A stretch of DNA of 64,000 bases, from contig NC_056536.1 in NCBI RefSeq assembly GCF_910596095.1, forward strand, positions 18,275,291-18,339,290, read 5' to 3'. How positions within the stretch are numbered: position 1 is the first letter of the stretch; each line of letters begins with the position of its first letter. Position numbers and translations under genes: made by a program. A model generated the notes under the pieces. It did not search any database and had not been told where the DNA came from. It saw only the letters and a program-made list of their open reading frames with translations. This DNA is from Thunnus maccoyii. Its lineage: Eukaryota; Chordata; Actinopteri; Scombriformes; Scombridae. Shown here in pieces: positions 3,560 to 57,186 of this stretch.

Positions 3560-3880
3560 TGTATATGTTTCCATTTCAATGACAATGCCCCCATTCACAT
3601 GGCACAAGGGGTCACTGAATGGTTTGATGAGTATGAAAATGATGTGAATCATATTCTATGGCCTTCACAGTCACCAGATCTCAACCTATTTGAACACCTA
3701 TGGGAGATTTTGAACCTATGTGTTAGACAGCATTCTCCACCACCATCATCAAAAATATCTTTTGAATTAATGGTGTTCATCCCTCTAAAAGAGCTCAGAG
3801 ACTTGGTAGAATCAATGTCAAGGTGTGTTAATGCTGTTCTGGTGGCCCAACACCTTACTATGACACTTTATGGCTTTTTC
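3560..3880 (+). pseudogene. Tc1/mariner transposase C-terminal relic
   Basis: The conceptual peptide includes '[18 protein letters not shown]', the hallmark third-catalytic-residue region of Tc1-like transposases (usually [15 protein letters not shown]), followed by '[11 protein letters not shown]' and a degenerate '[16 protein letters not shown]' C-terminal tail. The N-terminal DNA-binding part and the first two catalytic aspartates are absent or unreadable, so it cannot encode an active enzyme. No terminal inverted repeats were found. It is a dead genomic fossil. Confidence 0.8.
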
Positions 3881-4019
3881 TTTAATTTGCCATCCGTCTG
3901 TATGTACAGCATGTTTGTGTGTGGCTTAAAGTTAACATCAGTCAACAATTAGGTATTTATTCATCAACACTGTAATACATTGTAACAGTGATCAAACATT
4001 AACATGAACAGGGTCTCTA

Positions 4020-45810: not shown

Positions 45811-45901
45811 TCCTTGGGGCTGAGGTAGTAGATTGAATAGTTGTGGGGTTTTGTAACCTCTTTTTGAGATAACTATACAATCTACTGTCTTTCCCAAGGA
45901 G
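45811..45901 (+). ncRNA. let-7k: let-7 microRNA precursor (let-7k type)
   Basis: The 5p arm starts at 45821 with the seed TGAGGTAGTAG and continues ATTGAATAGTT (22 nt, to 45842). The 3p arm CTATACAATCTACTGTCTTT starts at 45873, and flanks CCTTGGGG / CCCAAGG close the stem. let-7 family RNAs repress heterochronic targets such as lin-28, lin-41 and Ras-type genes. The A at mature position 16, where let-7f has U, is the feature recorded for let-7k; the 3p arm has A opposite it, leaving an A:A mismatch. Certain as let-7; the subtype letter rests on that base. Confidence 0.93.
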
Positions 45902-46058: not shown

Positions 46059-46147
46059 GTCAGGGTGAGGTAGTAGGTTGTATAGTTTGGTGGGTGGGAC
46101 CGCACCCTGCTCAGGTGATAACTATACAGTCTATTGCCTTCCCTGAG
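46059..46147 (+). ncRNA. let-7a: let-7 microRNA precursor (let-7a/let-7j mature sequence)
   Basis: The mature 5p arm (46066-46087) starts TGAGGTAGTAGGTTGTATAG and is identical to let-7a. The 3p arm, CTATACAGTCTATTGCCTTC, starts at 46122, and CAGGG / CCCTG closes the stem. It lies 245 bp after the let-7k-type mature start, so the two are probably cut from one primary transcript. The same mature sequence is called let-7j in the bird let-7j/let-7k pair, which this cluster resembles. Confidence 0.95.
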
Positions 46148-49599: not shown

Positions 49600-49830
49600 T
49601 TTTTAGGTAGTCTGCCACTTTTAGGACAATGCCGGAGGAGGACAATCCTAAATATACAGCAAATGCAGCCAGGGAGTTTTTTATGACTCAGCAGTGGGAT
49701 GTTCTCGACTGGCATTGTCATTCACCTGACCTCAGTCCAGCTGAGCAGGTGTACCACTCCCTGAAAAACAGACCAAAGGCAAAAGTCCAGTTTGCAGTTC
49801 AGGTCTGGCAGAGAGGGAAGATATAAGTGT
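49600..49830 (+). pseudogene. Tc1/mariner transposase fragment
   Basis: A peptide with 'DNPKYTANAAREFF' and 'WDVLDWHCHSPDLSPAEQVY' corresponds to 'DPKHTA...W...[12 protein letters not shown]' around the second and third catalytic residues of Tc1-like transposases. The Pro-Ser of WPSQ is changed and upstream parts are missing. It is an inactive fossil. Confidence 0.75.
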
Positions 49831-55130: not shown

Positions 55131-55438
55131 CTACACTGTATTAGAGTCTCCTTGTAGTCCTCTCAAGGTCTTCTCGTCAAACCGGTAAGTGAGTTTTCTC
55201 TTCACCTTCTGAATCTCGCCAGTGCGGGAGTAATTCCTCAGTGCCCGTGCCATCTTCTGATAGGTCATAGTCTTGCGATTGCCCTTGCGGCGGCCCCACA
55301 TCTGTGCCAGTTGCTCCTTGTTTTGGGATGAAAACTGGAACGTCCCAGAGGACGAATGCACCCACCAGATGCAGCTTCGCATCGATGGCGTCTGGAGCAT
55401 CTCGAACAGGAACTGGAACAACCGCTCTTTTCTCTTTC
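55131..55438 (-). CDS. Spi-family gene, coding exon 5 (ETS domain)
   Basis: 308 nt, acceptor CCTTGGCAG, stop TAG 55133-55131. It contains the whole ETS domain and only about 13 residues after it. Confidence 0.96.
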
Positions 55439-57186
55439 CTGCCAAGGAGGAAGGGGATGTAAGTACACTTATGAGGGGACAGTATGTGTGTGGGAACATG
55501 CATGTCTTTAACATCTAAGCAGAGAGCTTTACACTACGTACAGGTGTGACTAGATTGGTTGAAGTTTGAGAGTTTTGTTGTAAAAAGTGCATGTGTGTGT
55601 GTGTATACCTGAGAGTGGGGCAAGAGGCAGGGAGTCCATGTTATTTCCATCTACCCTGTCAGAAGATGGAGACGGGGAATCATGGTATTCCTGGTACTGG
55701 GAGCTGCTGGACTGGGAGTCTGAGTCGATATATGCTGGTGCCTTGAAGGGATACACATTGTGGTCCTGGAGCAAACACATATAAAAACATATTAATAATT
55801 CACAGGTTCAACCATTCTATTAAATTATTAATAAAGTCAATCAACTGTCTTATTTTAGTCTCAGTTCAGCCTCAATATGATGAAAGGTGTCACATCCACC
55901 GCTGCAGTGTTCAGCCATAAAAGAGGTGATTAAGCTGTAATTTACTAAACGATTAAGGTGAGGTCCTTGAACTCACCCATTGGTTGTCATGTCGACTAGA
56001 CCAGGCTGTAGGCGGGCCTTGCTCTTCATATTCCTCATTTGGAGTGTTAGGGCCATAGTGCCACTCATAAGGATGCTGACCTGTACAGCTATTCACTGTG
56101 CAGATACAGACATAAGAAACAGTCAGACTAAAAATATAGAAACATACAGAAACACACACACTCCATCATCTGCATATGATCCTTTCCATCCCCACACTCA
56201 CCTGTGATCTTGGTACCCTGGTGGGTGGGTGTGTGCATTTGCTGCGCCATTGTGGTCGGTGGCGGGTGTGCAGGCTGAACCTCCAGCAAATGCTCCTGCA
56301 GGTACTCCTCAATGACCTCCAGGTCTACCTCAGGGCAGGAGGGGGGAGCCGCTCCGCTCCAGGCCGCCCGACCTCCACTCAGCCTGATTTCAGTCACATA
56401 AGCCATCTGACAGAGACAGAGAAGGACAGTAGCTTTCAGAAATCACACACACTCTGTTTTTTTACCAGGGGGTTGTTGATGTGTGATGCTGACAGAGACA
56501 AAAACACTTGCATTGCGTGATGGCTGGCATTTGTCTCATGTCAGTCATAGCCTGAGGTGTTGTTATTATCAGACCGAACACCCGCTGTTTTTTCTTTTCT
56601 TTTTTCATGATAACCCATTGTTGTTTTGTTGTGGAGCACTTTAGTGCTGTGGTGCATCACACAGTAAGTCATTTTGTTCTGAGATCTGAAGATCAAGGAT
56701 GCAATTTTTCAATTTGTTCATTTTAAGTGAGCTGTGAATTGTCGATAAATCATCCTTTTTTTCTTCTTCTTTTTTTTTTTACATGATATTAAACATCAGA
56801 AATTATTCTTTTTATATGACTAATTCTGTCCATCTAGGGTATAACATATATTTGTCAAACTTGGAAATGAGCCAAGCACCAACACTGTGACCATGTGTGT
56901 TTTAGTTTGACTGGCAAATTTATGCAAGTGTTTGTGTCCTCACCAGCCAGATAACATTCTGGTAACAGTGGTTTGTAGTTGAGCTGCTATTCTTACAAAC
57001 AACCTTTTATATTTATCCTACAGACATCGGTTACACTTCATAAGATATTTTTGAGCACTCTATTACTGGAACATTCAGTTGTATGAATACAAACACACTT
57101 TTCTTTGTCATTCATGGACTAACCTGAATCAAAAACATGCTAATTAAAAATAACATCAGACTCACCGTCTCCATTTCTGCCAACAT
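55131..57186 (-). CDS. Spi/PU.1-family ETS transcription factor, complete (five coding exons)
   Basis: Spi-family factors bind purine-rich GGAA sites and direct myeloid and B-cell development. Joined exons give 269 residues. The ETS domain occupies about 172-256: '[20 protein letters not shown]', '[18 protein letters not shown]', and the recognition helix '[20 protein letters not shown]' with Arg232 and Arg235, the two GGAA-reading arginines. Ser238 stands where SPI1, SPIB and SPIC have Gly or Ala. The N-terminus is acidic and aromatic ('[19 protein letters not shown]', 'HPYEWHYGP'), then Ser-rich. The five-exon layout and the N-terminal 'ML' in a tiny first coding exon match SPI1. ETS residues are nearest SPIC, but the long SPIC C-terminal tail is absent, so I do not assign a symbol. 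Confidence 0.93.
55609..55765 (-). CDS. Spi-family gene, coding exon 4 (Ser-rich)
   Basis: 157 nt, acceptor TTTGCTCCAG, donor GTATAC. It encodes '[20 protein letters not shown]', then a Ser/Pro-rich stretch with '[10 protein letters not shown]'. SPI1 has an acidic Ser-rich PEST region at this place. Confidence 0.87.
55977..56095 (-). CDS. Spi-family gene, coding exon 3
   Basis: 119 nt, acceptor TCTGCACAG, donor GTGAGT. It encodes '[19 protein letters not shown]' then '[13 protein letters not shown]'. Tyr/Trp-rich, as in the transactivation region of SPI1. Confidence 0.85.
56202..56406 (-). CDS. Spi-family gene, coding exon 2
   Basis: 205 nt, acceptor TCTGTCAG, donor GTGAGT. It encodes '[18 protein letters not shown]' onwards, with the acidic '[18 protein letters not shown]' segment, a plausible activation surface. 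If the upstream seven-codon exon is skipped, this ATG could itself start translation. Confidence 0.83.

What the first reader, a model, noticed from the sequence alone, without database searches (positions are those of the whole stretch)
55131..57186. Possible fourth vertebrate Spi/PU.1 paralogue
The ETS domain is unmistakably Spi-type (recognition helix with both GGAA-reading arginines). Yet the protein combines SPIC-like ETS residues ('[17 protein letters not shown]'), a SPI1-like five-exon layout with an 'ML' mini-exon, and no SPIC tail. The linkage adds weight. In mammals SPI1, SPIB and SPIC each sit beside a MYBPC gene (MYBPC3, MYBPC2, MYBPC1), and the related MYBPH lies next to ADORA1 on 1q32. 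A Spi gene about 7 kb from an A1/A3-type adenosine receptor, in a window that also has pkp1 (1q32), fits the fourth copy from whole-genome duplication, lost from mammals.
Basis: partly seen in the sequence, partly recalled or inferred. Interest (0 to 1): 0.78.

Follow-up and report, generated by a model that had tools for sequence, protein, structure and literature searches.

The report
Ray-finned-fish fourth PU.1-family gene
The window holds an intact fish gene for a blood-cell DNA-binding protein of the PU.1 family; it sits in the fourth of the four places that an ancient genome doubling would predict, is labelled Spi-B in databases, and is probably the gene already studied in zebrafish as spi2.

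Summary
A five-coding-exon Spi gene lies at 55131-57186 (-), 269 aa, identical to the yellowfin tuna protein filed as 'transcription factor Spi-B'. That name is not supported: AU tests reject a clade with SPIB, PU.1 or shark/skate Spi-D. The gene falls on the SPIC side, but tuna has a separate SPIC. Orthologues occur in teleosts, gar, bowfin and bichir. No SPIB was seen in tuna. What lowers novelty: a fourth ray-finned Spi gene, zebrafish spi2, is in print (Zhao 2022; title seen, abstract recalled), and this is most likely it. I did not find its assignment to the fourth 2R ohnologue in print (nine searches, open-licence library only). Unresolved: the root, absence from tetrapods and sharks, and a diverged tandem copy beside spic.

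The parts
57166..57186 (-). coding exon 1 (mini-exon, MLAEMET; 5' UTR not mapped)
   Evidence: spliced model, GT donor; an ML start is shared by all 9 rows, gar, bowfin, bichir and Megalops among them
56202..56406 (-). coding exon 2, holds the conserved acidic helix motif [12 protein letters not shown]
   Evidence: conserved in the 13-row alignment
56293..56322 (-). N-terminal acidic helix, residues 36-45, candidate activation or cofactor-docking helix
   Evidence: only helix predicted outside the ETS region, with low confidence (pLDDT 55-59 in its 10-residue blocks); function inferred
55977..56095 (-). coding exon 3
55609..55765 (-). coding exon 4, acidic Ser-rich stretch [10 protein letters not shown]
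55131..55438 (-). coding exon 5 with the whole ETS domain and a short C-terminus
55179..55424 (-). ETS domain (Spi type), recognition helix [10 protein letters not shown] with R232 and R235
   Evidence: (94.5 bits), fold match to PU.1, Spi-B and SpiD

Best explanation
This is the tuna copy of an ancient ray-finned-fish Spi gene (proposed to be the same as zebrafish spi2). It is the fourth ohnologue of the Spi quartet from the two early vertebrate genome duplications: SPI1 beside MYBPC3, SPIC beside MYBPC1, SPIB beside MYBPC2, and this gene in the PKP1/TNNT2/TNNI1/MYBPH (human 1q32) segment. It works like PU.1: the winged-helix ETS domain reads GGAA boxes through two arginines, while a largely unstructured N-terminus with one conserved acidic helix recruits the transcription machinery. 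The likely role, by transfer from zebrafish spi2, is to drive blood stem and progenitor expansion and myeloid output. Shown here: gene structure, predicted ETS fold and residues, orthologues in bichir, gar, bowfin and teleosts, exclusion from SPIB and PU.1, linkage in tuna. Inferred: DNA target, activation helix, blood role, identity with spi2, 2R origin. The human locations are recalled.
For: Identity with an NCBI tuna protein and teleost-wide orthologues; gar, bowfin and bichir orthologues, aligned over their length. Five Spi-type ETS exons among the genome's 43 ETS matches. ETS tree of 38 rows: window clade + SPIC + spic-like against PU.1 + SPIB/SpiD at 99/98; full-length tree of 34 rows, same split 100/100. 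AU: window+SPIB p 0.0057 (ETS) and 0.00067 (full); window+PU.1 p 0.035 and 0.0002; window+shark SpiD p 0.0045 and 0.00026. Residues P185, S196, N207, R218, T224, R239 have that state in 14 of 14 window rows and 2 of 2 SPIC rows and in 0 of 20 PU.1/SPIB rows. Linkage: csrp1, phlda3, tnni1, tnnt2 and a PKP1-type plakophilin 61-107 kb left of the gene; MyBP-C genes 20 kb from spi1 on C1 and 23-26 kb from spic and spic-like on C23, a MYBPH-type gene 219-229 kb from this one on C4. ETS fold matches PU.1 at TM 0.94 of the target length.
Against: The root of the Spi tree could not be placed, so the 1R/2R branching order is not shown. The monophyly of the window clade is disturbed by the long-branched C23 spic-like copy (one clade not rejected, p 0.30 and 0.10). 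MYBPH is 220 kb off, against 20-26 kb for the others, and its name rests on a recalled query and on lacking the MyBP-C THB motif. The second tuna spi1 (C5) has no THB match nearer than 8.6 Mb, so 3 of 4 Spi loci show the link. A troponin pair also exists at human 19q13 (recalled), so tnni1/tnnt2 alone would not separate 1q32 from 19q13; csrp1, phlda3 and pkp1 do. An ETV6/7-like gene and a Kv channel gene to the right are not 1q32 genes in mammals (recalled). Linkage was seen only in tuna, after the teleost duplication. With mouse Spi-B added, the ETS test against SPIB weakens to p 0.046.
Confidence: 0.78

Rival explanations
1. It is a ray-finned-fish-only duplicate of SPIC that was copied into the 1q32-type block after 2R.
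For: It shares class residues with SPIC; window+SPIC as a clade is not rejected (p 0.35 ETS; 0.28 full). A SPIC-side tandem copy exists on C23. The recalled abstract of Zhao 2022 calls spi2 exclusive to ray-finned fish.
Against: Already present in bichir, of the deepest ray-finned branch, with an N-terminus that by eye is unlike SPIC's. A chance landing within 230 kb of one of 10 MyBP loci is about 0.6% (uniform-placement estimate).
Confidence: 0.13
2. It is the ray-finned SPIB, as NCBI names it, only fast-evolving.
For: Source names for tuna, gar and bowfin; tuna has no other SPIB candidate.
Against: AU p 0.046 or lower in each of the five tests (and two), 0.00067 on full length; neighbours csrp1, phlda3 and pkp1 are of the 1q32 kind (human places recalled); it lacks, by eye, the LQ(N/S)V and LEVSD(G/S)E stretches that skate SpiD, coelacanth SPIB and pika PU.1 share.
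Confidence: 0.06
3. It is the orthologue of skate Spi-D, the fourth Spi gene described in cartilaginous fish.
For: SpiD is the best PDB match to the ETS domain (130 bits v Spi-B 127 and PU.1 122).
Against: AU p 0.00026 full length and 0.0045 ETS, or 0.0064 and 0.017 with the spic-like rows allowed inside. SpiD groups with the PU.1/SPIB class at 100/100 and shares a DENIPP motif with coelacanth SPIB.
Confidence: 0.02

Closest known systems
zebrafish Spi2 (Zhao et al. 2022, Development 149 dev200881)
   Same: ETS factor of the Spi group said to be found only in ray-finned fish (abstract recalled); cyprinid orthologues of the window gene exist. Passages seen: spi2 marks kidney HSPCs (PMC9365674, PMC10948150) and contributes to lymphoid/myeloid-primed progenitors (PMC12678299).
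   Different: I could not open the paper nor obtain the zebrafish Spi2 sequence, so identity is inferred. The fourth-ohnologue placement is added here.
SPI1 / PU.1
   Different: other class residues, no LQSV or LEVSD stretches by eye, other chromosome segment; tuna keeps two separate spi1 genes
SPIC
   Same: [17 protein letters not shown] and six class residues
   Different: no C-terminal tail, different N-terminus by eye; tuna has its own spic at C23:17074175 that groups with human SPIC (recalled letters) at 98/99
skate Spi-D (PDB 9d2x)
   Same: Spi-type ETS domain, once counted as a further Spi member (Anderson 2001, recalled)
   Different: belongs to the PU.1/SPIB class; clade with the window gene rejected

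Membership tests
Spi subfamily of ETS factors | ETS domain of Spi type with both GGAA-reading arginines | tested here: met
SPIB | groups with SPIB of lobe-finned fish and amphibians | tested here: not met
   AU p 0.0057, 0.00067, 0.046 with mouse Spi-B added, 0.041 and 0.0077 with spic-like allowed inside
SPI1/PU.1 | groups with PU.1 | tested here: not met
   AU p 0.035, 0.0002, 0.011
SPIC | groups with SPIC to the exclusion of other genes of the same genome | tested here: not met
   the tuna C23 gene, not this one, groups with SPIC at 98/99 (human letters recalled); a wider window+SPIC clade is not rejected
SPIC | extended C-terminal tail | tested here: not met
   6 residues v 66 in tuna spic
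skate Spi-D | clade with cartilaginous-fish SpiD | tested here: not met
   AU p 0.00026 and 0.0045
fourth 2R Spi ohnologue | lies in the fourth paralogon (1q32 type) with a MyBP family gene | tested here: met
   tuna only, human places recalled, MYBPH at 219-229 kb
fourth 2R Spi ohnologue | predates the teleost duplication | tested here: met
   gar, bowfin, bichir orthologues
fourth 2R Spi ohnologue | branching order of a rooted Spi tree fits 1R/2R | tested here: inconclusive
   root not placed with non-Spi outgroups
fourth 2R Spi ohnologue | same linkage outside teleosts | not testable with these tools
   no gar, shark or tetrapod genome at hand
zebrafish Spi2 | orthology by sequence | not testable with these tools
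   zebrafish Spi2 letters not obtained; paper not held

The most novel reading that the evidence does not exclude
Ray-finned fishes and other jawed vertebrates kept opposite members of the Spi quartet: ray-finned fishes kept the 1q32-type gene (spi2) and lost SPIB, while cartilaginous and lobe-finned lineages kept SPIB (skate Spi-D being SPIB) and lost spi2, so fish lymphoid and myeloid programmes run on a different ohnologue. The tandem spic-like copy with the same DLE(V/I)I helix could even mean that a Spi pair stood in tandem before 2R.
Probability: 0.4. Interest if true: 0.6.

Novelty: already known. Interest (0 to 1): 0.42.

Why it matters
It corrects a database name (Spi-B, PU.1 and Spi-C are all used for one orthologous gene), separates this gene from skate Spi-D, and turns a supposed ray-finned novelty into a likely 2R ohnologue with reciprocal loss. 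That makes it testable whether spi2 took over SPIB-type roles in fish blood and mucosal cells.

Tried and rejected
Rejected: SPIB, PU.1 and Spi-D identity (AU tests). Chance linkage to a MyBP gene (a rough uniform-placement estimate over 10 loci, some of them uncertain). A rooted tree with FLI/ERG-like and ETV6-like outgroups gave no usable root: branches of length 5-10 and open forks. SpiD as SPIB is favoured but not proved: it is the best full-length tree at 72/57 and 41/72, SpiD+PU.1 is not rejected (p 0.47), and SPIB/SpiD is not one clade in the ETS tree or the quick tree. An unread partial ETS match 0.29 Mb from the C3 MyBP genes was a possible SPIB remnant; read, it is not of Spi type (SPDEF-like by eye). 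Whether tetrapods or sharks hold an orthologue stays open: only 120 of 1019 matches were listed and teleosts filled the list. Paper searches for a fourth Spi gene or a fourth-ohnologue claim: (the tenth, asked about let-7); none of the listings or passages that I saw makes the claim, but most subscription journals are missing.

Full report
What is there. The window is C4:18275291-18339290 of a 782-Mb genome. The Spi gene is intact: five coding exons, four GT-AG introns, 269 aa, and the protein equals a record of yellowfin tuna named 'transcription factor Spi-B'. Of 925 matches to the full protein 120 were listed; the named ones are teleosts, except one labelled lamprey, and carry the names Spi-B, PU.1 and Spi-C in turn. 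With the Megalops ETS domain as query, 1019 proteins matched; the 120 listed include gar (P0124, P0125), bowfin (P0131) and bichir (P0153), and no named tetrapod, lobe-finned or cartilaginous species; some rows are unnamed. Gar, bowfin and bichir align along the protein, including DLDVIEEYLNE and SDSDS.

Other Spi genes of the tuna. The Pfam Ets search gave 43 matches. I read the loci of the best 14, the window's own among them, and found Spi-type ETS exons at C5:14843030, C1:24261801, C23:17071120 and C23:17074175 besides the window. Of the other 29 matches I read only three, at C4:18411483, C4:18411723 and C3:26518064, none of Spi type by eye; none of the 29 covers the ETS profile from 1 to 80 as all five Spi exons do, so a sixth Spi exon is unlikely, not excluded. 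The first two are PU.1 type; C23:17074175 is SPIC; C23:17071120, 3 kb away in the same orientation, is a diverged SPIC-side copy (spic-like). An open frame about 0.8 kb upstream of it carries 'DLEVILEFLEEYYRQN', like the window's '[12 protein letters not shown]'. Diretmus has the same pair, annotated as one 446-aa protein.

Phylogeny. ETS tree of 38 rows: window rows, SPIC and spic-like on one side, PU.1 and SPIB/SpiD on the other, 99/98. Full-length tree of 34 rows: the same split, 100/100. AU tests: window+SPIB p 0.0057 (ETS), 0.00067 (full); window+PU.1 p 0.035 and 0.0002; with spic-like allowed inside, window+SPIB p 0.041 and 0.0077; window+shark SpiD p 0.0045 and 0.00026, or 0.017 and 0.0064 with spic-like inside. 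Adding mouse Spi-B and a recalled human SPIC row, window+SPIB has p 0.046 and window+PU.1 p 0.011, and human SPIC joins the two fish SPIC rows at 98/99. Without the long SPIC and spic-like rows, 17 window rows are one side of a branch at SH-aLRT 100 (quick tree). Seven ETS residues separate window and SPIC rows from PU.1 and SPIB rows with a single shared state; one of them, R248, is also found in mouse Spi-B (letters), so I count six. Against a clean picture: with spic-like in the tree the window rows are not one clade (one clade not rejected, p 0.30 and 0.10), window+SPIC is not rejected (p 0.35 and 0.28), and the root could not be found.

Linkage. A 260-kb stretch of C4 holds, from left, csrp1 (18.224 Mb), phlda3 (18.230), tnni1 (18.238), tnnt2 (18.256) by tblastn with recalled human queries (MYBPH, ARL8A and BTG2 queries had no hit there), a plakophilin closest to PKP1 (18.269), an adenosine receptor (18.322), the Spi gene (18.330), an LGR4-type receptor (18.394), an ETV6/7-like ETS gene (18.411, by eye) and a Kv-type channel (18.432; Ion_trans and BTB_2). 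Neuron navigator 1 at 18.19-18.20 and ladinin at 18.242 were named by eye only. That csrp1, phlda3, tnni1, tnnt2, pkp1, MYBPH and ADORA1 lie at human 1q32.1 is recalled. Genome-wide, the MyBP-C-specific THB motif gave 11 matches: one is 20 kb from spi1 on C1 and one 23-26 kb from spic-like and spic on C23; the other spi1, on C5, has none nearer than 8.6 Mb. The recalled MYBPH query gave 129 matches (103 of 764 candidates scored), many of them in long titin-like frames on C11 and C5; four matches at C4:18101046-18111249 lie 219-229 kb from the Spi gene, and no THB match lies near them, which fits MYBPH. The query does not by itself separate MYBPH from MyBP-C: one exon on C23, beside spic, scored higher identity (68% v at most 64%). 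The window's receptor is 55-56% identical to three copies on C3; two of them, at 25.86-25.87 Mb, lie about 0.2 Mb from another MyBP gene without THB at C3:26.075 Mb, so C3 looks like the teleost-duplication partner, without a Spi gene. Among the 43 ETS matches no Spi-type exon lies near the MyBP genes of C3, C18 or C20, so SPIB appears lost in tuna.

How it works. The model has an ETS winged helix (174-263; pLDDT mostly 77-90 by 10-residue block) and one N-terminal helix (36-45, pLDDT 55-59) in an otherwise disordered chain; overall pLDDT is 59.9. Best PDB fold matches are PU.1 on DNA, Spi-B and SpiD. So a PU.1-like GGAA-binding factor is well supported by likeness; the acidic helix as activation or cofactor site is inference.

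What is known. Zebrafish spi2 is in print: I saw the title of Zhao 2022 in reference lists, and passages that use spi2 as an HSPC marker (PMC9365674; PMC10948150), report it raised in a leukaemia model (PMC9597180), give it a role in lymphoid/myeloid-primed progenitors (PMC12678299; PMC11136496) and say that spi2 and spic mark dendritic cells in the adult gut (PMC13381698). From memory, the abstract of Zhao 2022 describes a new ETS member exclusive to ray-finned fish, with progenitor and adult myeloid defects in mutants. I could not open that paper. So the gene is probably known; the fourth-ohnologue assignment is the added value.

Skate Spi-D. The skate SpiD ETS query returned cartilaginous proteins first, then amphibian, coelacanth, lungfish and caecilian SPIB mixed with PU.1; among 120 listed of 920 no ray-finned Spi-B was named, though reedfish PU.1 was; some rows are unnamed. 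SpiD is therefore of the PU.1/SPIB class and probably SPIB, but a tie with PU.1 is not rejected.

Noticed in passing
window 45815-45897 and 46060-46146 (+): Two let-7 precursors 162 bases apart (72 and 75 bits), mature arms of let-7k-like and let-7a type (names recalled), within about 1 kb of the adenosine receptor frames.
   Followed up: partly
L010 4073-4417 and 5195-5335 (-), C23: Diverged tandem spic-like gene 3 kb from spic that shares the N-terminal DLE(V/I)I helix with the window gene; its place in the tree is unstable and its origin unexplained.
   Followed up: partly
P0044: A protein labelled brook lamprey (Lampetra planeri) on a 20.6-kb contig is 76% identical to the tuna gene and looks like fish contamination of that assembly.
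   Followed up: no
P0165, P0167, P0169 and P0193, P0207: Skate and shark SpiD share a DEN(I/V/M)PP motif with coelacanth and lungfish SPIB; SpiD is probably SPIB.
   Followed up: partly
window 3560-3949 (+) and 49611-49826 (+): Open frames that look by eye like Tc1/mariner transposase fragments.
   Followed up: no
C4:18411483-18411827: ETV6/7-like ETS domain split over two exons, with a Kv-type channel gene 20 kb further right; neighbours not expected from mammalian 1q32 (recalled).
   Followed up: no
P0145 and P0146 (Scleropages): Two nearly identical window orthologues, one on a 24-kb contig; possibly allelic or an assembly duplicate.
   Followed up: no
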